DNA from: Anaerolineales bacterium
GTDB lineage: Bacteria; Chloroflexota; Anaerolineae; Anaerolineales; UBA6663
NCBI GenBank assembly: GCA_016789175.1
Contig: JAEURK010000012.1
Coordinates: 1-41,587 of the forward strand
DNA: 41,587 nt
Direction of reading: 5' to 3'
Positions 35,614 through 41,587 of this stretch are shown piece after piece. A model generated the notes under the pieces. The model was not told the DNA's origin. It made no database searches and saw only the letters and a list, made by a program, of their open reading frames with translations. The position numbers and the translations under genes are program-made. Position 1 is the stretch's first letter. Every line of letters starts with the position of its first letter.

Positions 35614-35659
35614 GAGATTTCCTCGTAAGGTGGGAGGCGATTGGCGCAATGATACAACC

Positions 35660-35750
35660 AAGACACCGGGAGTGCCCCGATGTCGGGCGACGCTCGACAT
35701 CGGGGCACATCGGGGCACATCGGGGCACATCGGGGCACTCCCGGTGTCTT
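35660..35750 (-). repeat. 91-bp palindromic element, copy 1
   Basis: Terminal inverted repeats of 24 bases (35660-35683 and 35727-35750) begin AAGACACCGGGAGTGCCCCG. Between them is CGGGCGACGCTCG, then the 10-base unit ACATCGGGGC repeated so that four copies end in the right arm (35697-35736). The reverse complement equals copy 2 (40534-40624) at 90 of 91 positions. It encodes nothing. It separates the esterase promoter from the upstream lipoprotein gene. Confidence 0.95.
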
Positions 35751-36424: not shown

Positions 36425-39217
36425 TTACAACGATTCGAGCTGAGCCACCAGCTTCGCGCGACCGGCCTCGGCCTCCGCCAGCCTGGCGCGTTCCTTGTCG
36501 ACCACGGCCGCGGGCGCGCGTTTAGCAAAGTCGGAGCCAAGCAGGCCCTGGCTCTTGGCGATCACGCGCTCCAGTTCGGCCAGCTCCTTGGTCAGGCGTT
36601 CGCGCTCGGCGCCGGCGTCGATCACGCCCTCGAGGAGCAGAAAGGCCTGCGTGCCGCCCTCGATCACCGAGATCGATTGGGCCGGGGCTTCGACGCTTGA
36701 CACAATCCTCAGCGCTGCCGCTTCGAGACCGGCCAACGCGGCCAGCACGTCGCGCTGCTCGGCCAGCCAACCGGCGCGCTCGCCGGCCGCGATGACGGCC
36801 CCCAGACGCTTTTTGGGCTCGATCTTCTTCTCGGTGCGCGCATTGCGGATTCCGCGCACCAGGGCGCGCAGGTGCTCGAATTGCTCGAGCGCCTCGCCGT
36901 CGGTGGCGCCCGCAGTCGGCCAGCTCGCCACGATCAGGGCCGGGCCCTCGTCCGCGAGACGCGGCAGCTTCTGCCACACGGCCTCGGTGATGTAGGGCAC
37001 GTACGGGTGCAACAGACGCAACGTCTGGTCGAGCACGTGCAGCAGGATCTGGCGGGTCGAATCGGCTGTGTCCTGGGCGCCCGCGTCCGCGGCCTTGAGT
37101 TGCAGCTTTGCGATCTCGACGTACCAGTCCGCGAAGTCGCCCCACAGGAAGTCGTAGATCTGGTTGCCGGCCTGGCCGAACTCGTAATCCTCGATGAAGC
37201 GCGTCGCGTCAGCGATCACGGTGTTGAGGCGCGAGAGGATCCAGCGGTCTGAGAGGGAGGGAGAAGGGAGAAGGGATGAGCGAACGAATCCCTCGGGCAG
37301 GTTCCCCACGATGAAGCGCGCGATGTTCCAGATCTTGTTGGCGAAGTTGCGGTTGGCCTCGACGCGCGCCAGGCTGAGGTTGAGGTCATTGCCGGGCGTG
37401 CCCGAGGTCAGCAGCGTGAAGCGCAGCGCGTCGGTGCCCATCGAGGCGATTCCGTCCGGGAACTGGTTGGCGATCACGGCGCTGCCGGCGGCGCGCACGG
37501 TGTCGCCCGAGGCGCCGTCGATGATCCAGCGCGGGTCGACCACGTTGCCCGTCGTCTTCGACATCTTGTGGCCGTGCTCGTCGCGCACCAGGCCATGCAG
37601 GTACACGGTGTGAAACGGCGCCGCGCGCGTGAACTCGAGGCCGGTCATGATCATGCGCGCCACCCAGAAGAACAGGATGTCGTAGCCGGTCTCCATGACG
37701 CTGGTCGGGTAGAAGTACTTGAGGTCCGGCGTGTCGTGCGGCCAGCCGAGCGTGCTGAACGGCCACAGACCCGAGCTGAACCAGGTGTCGAGCACGTCGG
37801 GATCCTGCTGCAGCTCGACCGACTTGCCGTGTTTGGCGCGCGCCAGGTTATAGGCGGCCGACTCGGTCCGGGCGACGAAGTATTCCTCGGTGGGCAGGCC
37901 GTCGGTGCCAACCACGTACCAGACCGGGATGCGGTGCCCCCACCACAGCTGGCGGCTGACCGTCCAGTCTTTGATGTTGTCGAGCCAGTTGAAGTACACC
38001 TTGCCGAAGCGCTCGGGCACGATGCGGATGCGCCCGTCGCGCACGGCGTCGAGACCGGCGGCGGCCAGGCCTTCCATCTTGACGAACCACTGCACCGAGA
38101 CCATCGGCTCGACAATCTCACCGCCGCGTTGCGAGCGGGGCGTGTTGCGCAGATACGGCTCGACCTTGAGTGTCAGCCCATCGGCCAGCATGTCGGCCCA
38201 GAGCTTCTCGCGGGCGGCGAAGCGGTCGAGGCCCTTGTAGGGCCCGCCGGCCGCCGTCACTTTGGCCTCGCGGTCGAGCATCGAGATGATCGGGAGCTTG
38301 TGGCGCGCGCCGACCTCGTAATCGGTGAAGTCGTGGCCGGGCGTAATCTTGAGCGCGCCGGTGCCGAAAGTGCGGTCGACAGCTTCGTCGGCGATCACGG
38401 GGATGCGCCGGTCAAGCATCGGCACGAGCACATCGCGGCCGATAAAGCGCTGGTAGCGCTCATCCTCGGGGTGCACGGCCACGGCCGTGTCGCCCAGGAT
38501 GGTCTCAGGCCGAGTCGTGGCCACCGGGATGAAGGCATCCTCGTCGGCCAGGCGGTACTTGAAATAGTAAAGGCTCCCGGGCTCCTCGCTGTACTCGACC
38601 TCGAGGTCGCTGACCGCGGTCTTGAGGCCCGGGCTCCAGTTGATCAGGCGCGGGCCGCGATAGATCAGGCCCTTGTCGTGCAGGCGCACGAAGGCCTCGC
38701 GCACGGCCACGCTCAGGCCCTCATCGAGCGTGAAGCGCACCCGGTCCCAATCGCAGCTGGCGCCGAGCCGGCGTAGCTGGTCGTAGATGATGCCGCCGTA
38801 TTTCTCCTTCCAGGCCCAGGTGCGGCGGAGAAATTCCTCACGGCCGAGTTCCTCACGCGTGACCTCGTCCTCGCGCAGCAACATCTTCTCGACCTGGAGT
38901 TGGGTGGCGATGCCGGCGTGGTCGGAGCCCGGCACCCACAGCGTCGGGTCGCCCTTCATGCGGTGGTAGCGGATCATCAGGTCCTCGACCGACACGAACA
39001 TAGCGTGGCCGAGGTGCAGCTCGCCCGTGACGTTCGGCGGTGGGATCGAGATCACAAACGGCTTCTTGGCCGGGTCATGGCCGGGCTTGTTCGGATCGTT
39101 GGACGGCTTGAACCAGCCGTTCTTCTCCCACCACGCGTAGAGCTCGCGCTCGGTCGCGGCGTGATCGTAAGTCTTGGGAAATTGCGGATTGCTGATTGCA
39201 GATTGCTGATTGGTCAT
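36425..39217 (-). CDS. valS: Valyl-tRNA synthetase
   Basis: 930 residues, a class I synthetase charging tRNA-Val. The HIGH-type motif is PPPNVTGELHLGHAM (near 60-75), the KMSKS motif is HKMSKTTGNVVDP (near 550), and the editing domain has PVATTRPETILGDTAVAV. The C-terminal coiled-coil arm begins after about residue 860. Two stretches come from dispersed repeats: residues 2-11 (TNQQSAISNP) are encoded by the GATTGCTGATTG word, and a linker SSLLPSPSLS before DRWILSRLN is encoded by a purine-rich segment. It lies 91 bases after the amidase gene, which is preceded by a GUC-specifier T-box, so it is probably valine-regulated. The start at 39217 has no clear ribosome-binding site. Confidence 0.97.
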   Translation of the reverse strand: MTNQQSAISNPQFPKTYDHAATERELYAWWEKNGWFKPSNDPNKPGHDPAKKPFVISIPPPNVTGELHLGHAMFVSVEDLMIRYHRMKGDPTLWVPGSDHAGIATQLQVEKMLLREDEVTREELGREEFLRRTWAWKEKYGGIIYDQLRRLGASCDWDRVRFTLDEGLSVAVREAFVRLHDKGLIYRGPRLINWSPGLKTAVSDLEVEYSEEPGSLYYFKYRLADEDAFIPVATTRPETILGDTAVAVHPEDERYQRFIGRDVLVPMLDRRIPVIADEAVDRTFGTGALKITPGHDFTDYEVGARHKLPIISMLDREAKVTAAGGPYKGLDRFAAREKLWADMLADGLTLKVEPYLRNTPRSQRGGEIVEPMVSVQWFVKMEGLAAAGLDAVRDGRIRIVPERFGKVYFNWLDNIKDWTVSRQLWWGHRIPVWYVVGTDGLPTEEYFVARTESAAYNLARAKHGKSVELQQDPDVLDTWFSSGLWPFSTLGWPHDTPDLKYFYPTSVMETGYDILFFWVARMIMTGLEFTRAAPFHTVYLHGLVRDEHGHKMSKTTGNVVDPRWIIDGASGDTVRAAGSAVIANQFPDGIASMGTDALRFTLLTSGTPGNDLNLSLARVEANRNFANKIWNIARFIVGNLPEGFVRSSLLPSPSLSDRWILSRLNTVIADATRFIEDYEFGQAGNQIYDFLWGDFADWYVEIAKLQLKAADAGAQDTADSTRQILLHVLDQTLRLLHPYVPYITEAVWQKLPRLADEGPALIVASWPTAGATDGEALEQFEHLRALVRGIRNARTEKKIEPKKRLGAVIAAGERAGWLAEQRDVLAALAGLEAAALRIVSSVEAPAQSISVIEGGTQAFLLLEGVIDAGAERERLTKELAELERVIAKSQGLLGSDFAKRAPAAVVDKERARLAEAEAGRAKLVAQLESL
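37251..37290 (+). repeat. Purine-rich element fragment inside valS
   Basis: The plus-strand run GAGAGGGAGGGAGAAGGGAG followed by AAGGGATGAGCGAACGAATC resembles the purine arm and core start of the element at 5431-5480. It encodes the low-complexity linker SSLLPSPSLS of ValRS in frame. The resemblance is partial. Confidence 0.45.
39187..39212. repeat. Two exact copies of GATTGCTGATTG in the first codons of valS
   Basis: Copies at 39187-39198 and 39201-39212, separated by CA, identical to the arm of the inverted repeat at 1162-1173. They encode valS residues 2-11 on the minus strand. Confidence 0.85.
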
Positions 39218-39263
39218 TTGCGTATTGCGATAGCTGCCTGATGATGGGTTGATGTTCGAGCCC

Positions 39264-39285
39264 GAGGCTCAGTCCGCTGAGCCTC
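39264..39285 (-). other. Hairpin between the amidase gene and valS
   Basis: GAGGCTCAG (39264-39272) and CTGAGCCTC (39277-39285) pair perfectly around TCCG. It lies in the 91-base gap and has no T tract, so it may be an mRNA processing or stabilising structure, not a terminator. Confidence 0.5.
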
Positions 39286-39308
39286 AGGTGGGTCGTTGAT
39301 CTGTCCGG

Positions 39309-40265
39309 TCATGGCGTGCTCCGTGAGGGCGGGTTCAGGATGGCGTCGTCGGCCAGCACGGCATGGACGCCGCGCACGCCGTTCACGATCTGGGTCACCC
39401 GCAGATCGACAACGACGCCGGCCAGCGCCAGGGCGCGCCGCTTGTCGAAACCGTGCAGGGTGCCCAGCAAGGTCACCATGGCGGCGAGCGCCCGATGCGC
39501 GGCCTGGGTCAGATCCTCATCCAGCCCGAACGTGATCCACCCGGCCGGTGTGCGCGCGTAGGGTGTGCTCAGGAGCGGCTGCGGCTCAAGCGACAGACGC
39601 AGCACCACGCGCTCGAGCGGGCACTCGACGGCGGTCACCGAGGCCTCACCGTCGCCCTGCGCGGCGTGGCCGTCCCCGAACGAGAAGAGCGCCAGCGGCA
39701 CCTCGATCGGCAGCACCAGCCGGCTCCCGGTGATCAATTCGCGACAATCCAGGTTGCCGCCGGTGTTGCGCGGTGGGATCGTCGAATGTCGGCCGGGCGC
39801 GGCCGGGGCGACGGCCAGTTGACCCAGGAAGGGCCGCAGACGGATTATGTCGCCGAATTGATTGCGCCCGATGCCGGCCGCGGCATCCAGGCTCCAGTCG
39901 AAGTCGTACAGCCCGTCGACGATGCCGAAGGCCCGGTTGATCGGATGATCCCAACCGCCGGCGACCGTCCAGCCCCAGGCGCCGACCATGATCTCATCGA
40001 TATCGATTGCCAGACCCATGCCGGGCTCGGCGCCGCGCACGGCAACCGGGCCAAGCAGCGCATGGCCGTTGTCGCGTGCGCGATCGCGGTCCGTGAACGG
40101 CGGCCGTTCCATCCCGGCTGTGGGCCGCGGGCCGATGCTCCAGCCCGCGTCGAGCGTCCGCGCGACGATCGTGTCGCCCGGGTCGATCGTCAGGATCGGA
40201 GCCAGATCGCGCGAGAAGTGGCCGTGCAACGTCGCGCGCTCGGGTTGAAGGGTGTGTGTCGCCAT
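39309..40265 (-). CDS. Acetamidase/formamidase family protein
   Basis: 318 residues of the FmdA/AmdA family, which hydrolyses formamide, acetamide or similar short amides to ammonia and the acid. Typical blocks are GDTIVARTLDAGWSIG near the N-terminus, GAEPGMGLAIDIDEI, the Asn-Gly rich TGGNLDCRELITGSRLVLPI and the metal-site motif FSFGDGHAAQGDGE. It should be cytoplasmic. ATG 40265 is preferred to the in-frame TTG at 40271, which lies in the T run of a terminator. The gene starts only 4 bases after the T-box terminator, whose descending arm contains GAGAGGG, the likely ribosome-binding site. Its control by a valine T-box, together with valS downstream, is unexpected for an amidase. Confidence 0.9.
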   Translation of the reverse strand: MATHTLQPERATLHGHFSRDLAPILTIDPGDTIVARTLDAGWSIGPRPTAGMERPPFTDRDRARDNGHALLGPVAVRGAEPGMGLAIDIDEIMVGAWGWTVAGGWDHPINRAFGIVDGLYDFDWSLDAAAGIGRNQFGDIIRLRPFLGQLAVAPAAPGRHSTIPPRNTGGNLDCRELITGSRLVLPIEVPLALFSFGDGHAAQGDGEASVTAVECPLERVVLRLSLEPQPLLSTPYARTPAGWITFGLDEDLTQAAHRALAAMVTLLGTLHGFDKRRALALAGVVVDLRVTQIVNGVRGVHAVLADDAILNPPSRSTP

Positions 40266-40269
40266 AAAC

Positions 40270-40305
40270 AAAAAAGCCCTCTCGTCCGTGTGAGGACGAA
40301 AGGGC
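40270..40305 (-). terminator. Terminator of the T-box leader
   Basis: On the minus strand a 12-base stem (40294-40305 with 40276-40287, one non-Watson-Crick pair) ends in TTTTTT (40270-40275), 4 bases before the amidase ATG. The alternative antiterminator would use the T-box sequence just upstream. Confidence 0.92.
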
Positions 40306-40523
40306 CTGCCTTCCGTGGTACCACCTCAGTTCCCGGCCGGGCCGGGCGCTTGGTTGCGCGGTAGCGGGCGCACCCGGGCGGGTCTAGTACTCGGTTTAGC
40401 CGAGGTTCTTCCGCCGTGTCACCGGGCGACTTTCCGCGCTGGTCGTCGGGGCGGGCTTGCACCACTGGGCCCATCCTCGCTGTCGACGTTGGAGCGCGTA
40501 CTCCTCCCGGTCGATGAAAGAAT
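40270..40523 (-). promoter_or_regulatory. T-box riboswitch leader, GUC (valine) specifier
   Basis: On the minus strand, stem I is anchored by CCGGG/CCCGG. The 5' side has the loop-E AGUA (in GAGGAGTACGC), the AG-bulge AGCGAG, and the distal loop TGGTGCAAGCC. The descending side has GGAAA followed by GUC (40428-40430), a valine codon in the specifier position. Further down, GAGGTGGTACCACGG (T-box core 40313-40323) is the conserved antiterminator sequence; its UGGU pairs with an ACCA tRNA end. The rho-independent terminator follows. Uncharged tRNA-Val should permit read-through into the amidase gene and valS. Confidence 0.93.
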
Positions 40524-40533: not shown

Positions 40534-40624
40534 AAGATACCGGGAGTGCCCCGATGTGCCCCGATGTGCCCCGATGTGCCCCGATGTCGAGCGTCGCCCG
40601 ACATCGGGGCACTCCCGGTGTCTT
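40534..40624 (+). repeat. 91-bp palindromic element, copy 2
   Basis: Arms 40534-40557 (starting AAGATACCGGGAGTGCCCCG) and 40601-40624 flank four GCCCCGATGT units (40548-40587) and CGAGCGTCGCCCG. Identical to the reverse complement of copy 1 except one base in the left arm (T for C). It fills the space between the T-box promoter and the lysA promoter, which point away from each other. Confidence 0.95.
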
Positions 40625-40628
40625 GCCT

Positions 40629-40634
40629 TACAAT
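40629..40634 (+). promoter_or_regulatory. -10 box TACAAT of lysA
   Basis: TACAAT, then 6 bases, then the lysA ATG at 40641, so the message would be leaderless. It starts 4 bases after the end of the 91-bp element, so any -35 lies inside that element. Confidence 0.55.
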
Positions 40635-40640
40635 CCCGGC

Positions 40641-41587
40641 ATGTCTTCCTTTGCATACACCGATGCCACCCTCGCCTGCGACGGCCTGCCACTGCCGGCG
40701 TTGGCCGAGCGCTTCGGCACACCGCTCTACATATATTCTGCCGCCACGATCCGCGAACGGGTCGCGCGCATCAAGGCCGCGTTCCAGGCGCTTAAACCCG
40801 AACTATATTTCGCCGTGAAGGCCAATGGCAATCTGTCGATCCTGAAGCTGTTGCGCGTCGAAGGCGTCGGCTTCGATATCGTCTCGGGCGGCGAATTGGC
40901 CCGCGCGCTGGCGGCCGGCGCCGACCCGGCTCGGATCGCGTTCGCCGGAGTCGGCAAGACGGCCGCCGAGATGGCTGCGGCGCTCGACGCCGGAGTCGGT
41001 TGGTTCAATGCCGAGTCGGCCGACGAACTTGGCCGGCTGAATGCCCTGGCCAGCGCGCGCGGACGTCGCGCCCGAGTGGCCCTGCGTCTCAACCCGGACG
41101 TCGAGCCCGACACCCACCGCCATATCCGCACCGGCGGGGCCGCCAGCAAGTTCGGGCTGCCGCTCGATCAGGCTCACGCCATTGTGCACGGGTGGGGCGT
41201 TTACCCTGCGCTCGATCTGGCCGGCGCGCATATCCACATCGGCTCGCAGATGGCCGGTGCCGGTCCCTGGCGGGCGGCGCTGGATGCCATGCTCGCGTTC
41301 GTGGCAGCCTATCCATCGATCACGCACGTCGATCTGGGCGGCGGGCTCCCGGTGAGCTACGCCGATGCGCCGGCGCCCGAACCGGCGATCTTTGCCGGAC
41401 CGATCGTCGAGCGGCTGCAGCCGTTGGTTGGGCGCCTGTCGATCGGGCTCGAGCCGGGGCGCTATCTGGTGGCCGAGTCGGGAGTGCTGGTCACCGAGGT
41501 GCAGGCGTTGAAGACGATGGGCGGCCGCCGCATGGCCGTGGTCGATACGGGCATGCACCACCTGATCCGGCCCATGCTCTATGAGGC
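40641..41587 (+). CDS. lysA: Diaminopimelate decarboxylase, N-terminal part (runs off the window)
   Basis: 315 complete codons of a fold-type III PLP decarboxylase; the C-terminus is beyond the window. The PLP lysine is K60 in YFAVKANGN; HIHIGSQ near 196-202, DLGGGLPVSY and the PLP-phosphate-binding EPGRYLVAESG are the expected blocks. It converts meso-diaminopimelate to lysine in the cytoplasm. The start MSSFAYTDATLACDGLPLP fits the family, with ATG 40641 only 6 bases after a TACAAT box and no ribosome-binding site. It diverges from the T-box transcript across the 91-bp repeat. A related decarboxylase (ornithine/arginine type) is unlikely given the family blocks. Confidence 0.93.
   Translation, partial: MSSFAYTDATLACDGLPLPALAERFGTPLYIYSAATIRERVARIKAAFQALKPELYFAVKANGNLSILKLLRVEGVGFDIVSGGELARALAAGADPARIAFAGVGKTAAEMAAALDAGVGWFNAESADELGRLNALASARGRRARVALRLNPDVEPDTHRHIRTGGAASKFGLPLDQAHAIVHGWGVYPALDLAGAHIHIGSQMAGAGPWRAALDAMLAFVAAYPSITHVDLGGGLPVSYADAPAPEPAIFAGPIVERLQPLVGRLSIGLEPGRYLVAESGVLVTEVQALKTMGGRRMAVVDTGMHHLIRPMLYE

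What the first reader, a model, noticed from the sequence alone, without database searches (positions are those of the whole stretch)
39309..40523. A valine T-box placed in front of an amidase gene, with valS behind it
The sequence directly shows a complete T-box leader with a GUC specifier, the UGGUACCACGG core and a terminator ending 4 bases before an acetamidase/formamidase ATG. valS follows 91 bases later on the same strand. T-boxes are known for synthetase, amino-acid biosynthesis and transport genes; an FmdA/AmdA-type amidase as first gene is not something I know to be described. Either the amidase joined a valS transcript, or its ammonia or amide substrate relates to branched-chain amino acid supply. 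The ribosome-binding site appears to lie in the terminator stem, adding translational control.
Basis: partly seen in the sequence, partly recalled or inferred. Interest (0 to 1): 0.75.

Follow-up and report, generated by a model that had tools for sequence, protein, structure and literature searches.

The report
Passenger amidase in a valine-tRNA-controlled operon
A standard RNA switch that senses uncharged valine tRNA and normally sits directly before the valine-tRNA ligase gene here has an unrelated amidase gene between the two; sister genomes carry other unrelated genes in the same slot, so the amidase is most likely a passenger and the switch itself is ordinary.

Summary
A complete transcriptional T-box (RF00230, 62.2 bits, E 2.9e-13, 40289-40523, minus) has a GUC specifier, a UGGU core and mutually exclusive antiterminator and terminator. 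The terminator tail ends 4 bases before an FmdA/AmdA-family ORF, and valS follows 91 bases later. A matching tRNA-Val(GAC) with discriminator A is in the genome, and the structure covaries across 22 relatives.

The suggested valine-amidase link is not supported. In 32 of 42 genomes of the order with a recognisable valS T-box, the T-box lies directly before valS. In 10 something lies between: Mrp ATPase plus lipoprotein (same family), PhzF, YCF48-like, PIN toxin, BioY, an unnamed ORF, an antisense HicA, and here the amidase. Twelve amidase relatives elsewhere show no T-box within the kilobases examined, and none lies beside valS. In this same genome the isoleucine T-box is followed by AlaX-like and another ORF before ileS.

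Best reading: the amidase is a passenger captured between an ancestral Val T-box and valS, read through when tRNA-Val is uncharged. T-box operons whose ligase is not the first gene are already reported (PMC2494555). The recurrent slot is a modest new point. Transcription and regulation are inferred, not shown.

The parts
40289..40523 (-). T-box leader, tRNA-Val type, transcriptional
   Evidence: RF00230 62.2 bits, E 2.9e-13; covariation in 22 relatives
40428..40430 (-). Specifier triplet GUC (Val) in the specifier loop of Stem I (GAAA-GUC-G)
   Evidence: Falls in the specifier columns of the Rfam alignment; GUC in 20 of 22 aligned valS T-boxes, own included, GUA in one, no Val triplet in one; tRNA-Val GAC present
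40309..40327 (-). 5' half of the antiterminator with T-box bulge UGGU (pairs with ACCA of tRNA-Val) and core UGGUACCACGG
   Evidence: tRNA-Val(GAC) discriminator base A
40276..40305 (-). Intrinsic terminator hairpin, 12 bp, followed by UUUUUU; its 5' arm is shared with the antiterminator
   Evidence: conserved in relatives
40277..40283 (-). Only Shine-Dalgarno-like stretch (GAGAGGG) before the amidase, inside the terminator 3' arm, 11-12 nt from ATG
   Evidence: sequence; function inferred
39309..40265 (-). FmdA/AmdA-family amidase, 318 aa, interposed passenger gene
   Evidence: PF03069 E 4.3e-28; PDB relatives 2ii1, 3b9t, 2f4l
39218..39308 (-). Amidase-valS gap: a 12-bp hairpin (core 39264-39285) without U tract; no promoter- or terminator-like site found
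36425..39217 (-). valS, valine--tRNA ligase, 930 aa
   Evidence: NF004349 1122 bits

Best explanation
The T-box is the ordinary, inherited regulator of valS in this order of (probably) Chloroflexota. In this lineage an FmdA/AmdA-family amidase gene, of a kind that is scattered and has no fixed neighbours, came to lie between the T-box terminator and valS on the same strand. Uncharged tRNA-Val(GAC) pairs with GUC by its anticodon and with UGGU by its ACCA end, stabilises the antiterminator, and lets RNA polymerase read into amidase and valS. Charged tRNA leaves the terminator to form just before the amidase ATG, so both genes are off together. The amidase is a passenger that falls under valine control because it tolerates this regime, not because it serves valine metabolism. 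Shown: RNA anatomy, gene order, ancestral arrangement, recurrent filling of the slot. Inferred: transcription across the operon, response to tRNA, lack of a valine role.
For: T-box by covariance model. 34 of 47 pairs with two-sided changes; covariation score 0.435 against 0.181 in shuffles and at most 0.141 when slid. tRNA-Val(GAC) with A73. T-box directly before valS in 32 of 42 genomes of the order (core to valS match 63-216 nt), with intervening sequence of 0.6-2.4 kb in 10. Occupants differ: Mrp/NUBPL ATPase + lipoprotein in G002, remnant + same lipoprotein in G005 (same family), PhzF in G043 and G012, YCF48-like in G012, G025 and G060, PIN-domain gene in G025, BioY in G053, an unnamed ORF in G040, antisense HicA in G007. 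Nine of the ten have the ORFs on the valS strand. No T-box in 12 amidase loci, no valS in 15; neighbours not conserved. Own Ile T-box: an AlaX-like gene and another ORF precede ileS. No promoter or terminator found in the amidase-valS gap.
Against: No transcript data. A strong 12-bp hairpin lies in the amidase-valS gap and could mark processing or a different 3' end. valS might have an own promoter that the simple sigma-70 scan does not recognise. The same-genus genome G001 has a contig end inside valS, so whether the amidase is shared cannot be seen. The genome is a fragmented assembly (460 contigs).
Confidence: 0.82

Rival explanations
1. The amidase is a functional member of the valine-starvation response: it frees ammonia or an acid from amides when Val-tRNA charging falls, and was kept under the T-box for that reason.
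For: Position as first gene directly after the terminator; ORF intact and similar in composition to its neighbours.
Against: No association of homologues with valS, or with T-boxes in the flanks examined; the slot holds quite different genes in sister genomes; family substrates are short amides by name, none tied to valine.
Confidence: 0.07
2. Only the amidase is under this T-box; valS has its own promoter in or near 39218-39308.
For: A 91-base gap with a strong hairpin.
Against: No promoter-like or terminator-like site found there; the T-box precedes valS directly in 32 relatives, so it is the valS regulator by descent.
Confidence: 0.08
3. The order is an assembly artefact.
For: Fragmented assembly; inverted 92-bp repeats (98.9% alike) lie on both sides of the valS operon.
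Against: T-box, amidase and valS all lie inside the repeat pair, so a wrong join at the repeats would not change their order; the Val T-box and valS belong together, so a false amidase would need two joins.
Confidence: 0.03

Closest known systems
T-box riboswitch of valS (RF00230), transcriptional type
   Same: Stem I with specifier GUC, conserved apical loop, IIA/B helix, stem III, UGGN core, antiterminator/terminator
   Different: Nothing essential; below Rfam's gathering score like all T-boxes found in this genome; first gene is an amidase
[quoted passage not shown] 2008, PMC2494555)
   Same: T-box specificity matches the ligase, a different gene lies first (e.g. spr0489, 'Val-tRNA ligase related hypothetical')
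   Different: There the examples are from Firmicutes and were read as ligase-related; here the first gene is an FmdA/AmdA amidase and the occupant changes between related genera
FmdA/AmdA acetamidase/formamidase family (PF03069; PDB 2ii1, 2f4l, 3b9t, 2wkn)
   Same: Family match well over the curated cut-off, solved relatives over most of the protein
   Different: Short form (318 aa); 61 bits against a cut-off of 500 for the FmdA formamidase equivalog NF045496, so substrate not assigned

Membership tests
T-box riboswitch (RF00230) | Match to the covariance model over its full length | tested here: met
   62.2 bits, E 2.9e-13, positions 1-219; under the curated gathering score of 93
T-box riboswitch (RF00230) | Specifier codon that matches the downstream synthetase and a tRNA of the genome | tested here: met
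   GUC; valS downstream; tRNA-Val(GAC) found
T-box riboswitch (RF00230) | UGGN core pairing with tRNA NCCA, N matching the discriminator base | tested here: met
   UGGU against A73 of tRNA-Val(GAC)
T-box riboswitch (RF00230) | Mutually exclusive antiterminator and terminator | tested here: met
   Both share CCUUUCGUCC; conserved in relatives
T-box riboswitch (RF00230) | Read-through induced by uncharged tRNA | not testable with these tools
   needs an in vitro or in vivo assay
FmdA/AmdA family (PF03069) | Pfam gathering score | tested here: met
   98.7 bits against 27
FmdA formamidase (NF045496) | Equivalog cut-off of 500 bits | tested here: not met
   61.4 bits
Functional valine-amidase regulon | Conserved linkage of this amidase with valS or a T-box in other genomes | tested here: not met
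   no valS in 15 loci, no T-box in 12

The most novel reading that the evidence does not exclude
In this order the stretch between an aminoacyl-tRNA synthetase T-box and its synthetase is a recurrent capture site, where unrelated genes are repeatedly placed under control of uncharged tRNA and some, such as this amidase, are kept because induction on amino-acid shortage is useful (nitrogen scavenging).
Probability: 0.12. Interest if true: 0.55.

Novelty: new member of a known kind. Interest (0 to 1): 0.3.

Why it matters
T-box specificity is used to guess the function of the gene behind it (as in PMC2494555). Here that inference would wrongly assign the amidase to valine metabolism. The comparison shows that the gene between T-box and synthetase turns over between related genera, so annotation by T-box specifier needs a check of the ancestral arrangement first.

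Tried and rejected
Rfam at gathering threshold finds nothing; a lowered threshold was needed. Searching the same-genus genome G001 for the leader or amidase gave nothing, but its valS contig starts inside the gene; undecided, not counted as absence. The T-box hit in G004 (C593) proved to lie before a leuS-like gene, not valS. Two of the main T-box surveys (PMC2271356, PMC2650889) are not held, so precedent there is unchecked. No paper found joining T-boxes with acetamidase or formamidase. The idea that the amidase replaced the Mrp-lipoprotein pair of sister genera is possible (this genome has no clear copy of the lipoprotein) but independent gains cannot be excluded. The amidase tree places the window among Chloroflexota with a Solirubrobacter protein as nearest row, without support for the exact place. 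The hairpin in the amidase-valS gap is not a dispersed repeat: one copy in the genome.

Full report
What is there. On the minus strand a full T-box leader lies at 40523-40289. Its Stem I has a specifier loop reading GAAA-GUC-G and an apical loop with GGUGCAA; the IIA/B helix, stem III, the core UGGUACCACGG and a 12-bp terminator with six U follow. The antiterminator (GAGG-bulge-ACGGAAGG with CCUUUCGU-CCUC, -11.4 kcal/mol) and the terminator (-22.7 kcal/mol) use the same stretch and cannot coexist. The ATG of a 318-aa FmdA/AmdA-family protein comes 4 bases after the T run, and valS starts 91 bases after its stop codon.

More than chance. The covariance match has E 2.9e-13. It falls under Rfam's gathering score, as do all seven T-boxes of this genome. 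On an alignment of 22 valS T-boxes of the order, 34 of 47 pairs show changes on both sides, with a covariation score of 0.435 against 0.181 in shuffles and at most 0.141 for slid structures. The structure was derived from the window's own sequence, which favours it on the fraction paired but hardly on two-sided changes. The genome has three tRNA-Val genes among those read (CAC, GAC, TAC); the GAC one ends ...CCGCCC-A, so anticodon and ACCA end fit GUC and UGGU.

Ancestral state. valS was located in 48 of 61 genomes, nearly all of the same order. A valS T-box could be recognised in 42, counting the window, by the core motif and its position, with Rfam confirmation for many. In 32 the core lies 63-216 nt before the start of the valS match. 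In 10 there is a longer gap with ORFs. The BioY case (G053) rests on motif and specifier alone; Rfam did not report it at E 0.01. Two genomes of one family (G032, G044) showed no T-box near valS.

What fills the slot. Same family: G002 has an Mrp/NUBPL-type ATPase (PF10609, 226 bits) and a lipoprotein-like ORF; G005 has a fragment resembling the ATPase start and a homologue of that lipoprotein (57% identity). Other families: PhzF-like (G043, G012), YCF48-like (G012, G025, G060), Arc-like plus PIN (G025), BioY (G053), an ORF without Pfam match (G040), and HicA on the opposite strand (G007). The occupants have nothing evident in common with valine. In nine of ten cases the genes run with valS.

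Same thing for isoleucine. In this genome the T-box on C75 has AUC in the specifier columns. Behind it lie an AlaX-like editing protein (PF07973 match), whose ATG follows the terminator nearly as closely as the amidase's does, a short ORF that I read as GxxExxY-type from its sequence (not tested by profile), and then a long ORF whose sequence looks like ileS (ileS identity read by eye, not by profile).

The amidase elsewhere. It is patchy: 11 of 61 genomes including the window's, with the closest other at 50% identity; 20 loci in the GTDB genomes by pattern search, the nearest from Solirubrobacter at 57%. None of 15 loci examined holds valS within the stretch read, and 12 of them hold no T-box at E 0.01. 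Neighbours differ from locus to locus. The pattern search finds close relatives only, so this is a sample.

Mechanism. By established T-box biology: uncharged tRNA-Val stabilises the antiterminator, giving amidase and valS together; charged tRNA leaves the terminator and stops both. The only SD-like stretch for the amidase lies in the terminator's 3' arm, 11-12 nt from the ATG. It is free when the antiterminator forms. Translation control on top is possible, but since termination precedes the ATG it adds little.

Judgement. Observation correct; T-box ordinary; amidase most likely a passenger. Precedent for ligases that are not first in T-box operons exists (PMC2494555). The identity of the first gene and the turnover of the slot are the new details. 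Interest 0.3.

Noticed in passing
window 35659-35750 and 40534-40625: A 92-bp palindromic repeat, 98.9% alike and in inverted orientation, lies on both sides of the valS operon; related palindromes occur at about six other places in the genome. It could allow inversion of the segment or mislead an assembler.
   Followed up: partly
G000:C75:4646-4904 (L002, L176): Ile-type T-box (AUC) followed by an AlaX-like tRNA-editing protein and another ORF before a long ORF that looks like ileS: the same kind of interposition in the same genome.
   Followed up: partly
G000:C197:11799-12036 (L005): A T-box starts about 160 bases after the tRNA-Val(GAC) gene, at a contig end; its specifier and target gene are unknown. 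The stretch after it is a long palindrome built of ATTGCTGATTG-like repeats.
   Followed up: no
G022 valS T-box (L033): The specifier columns read GGC rather than a valine codon although valS follows; possibly a misalignment or a decayed leader.
   Followed up: no
G005 (L102:4200-4390): After the valS T-box lies a short fragment resembling the start of an Mrp ATPase with a GKGGVGK-like motif, as if the gene kept whole in G002 had decayed here.
   Followed up: partly
G032 and G044 (L085, L096): valS follows an ABC transporter pair and shows no T-box, suggesting loss of the leader in that family.
   Followed up: no
window 40554-40640: The listed lysA ORF starts inside the repeat (MCPDVPRCAP...); the likely true start is the ATG at 40641.
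   Followed up: no
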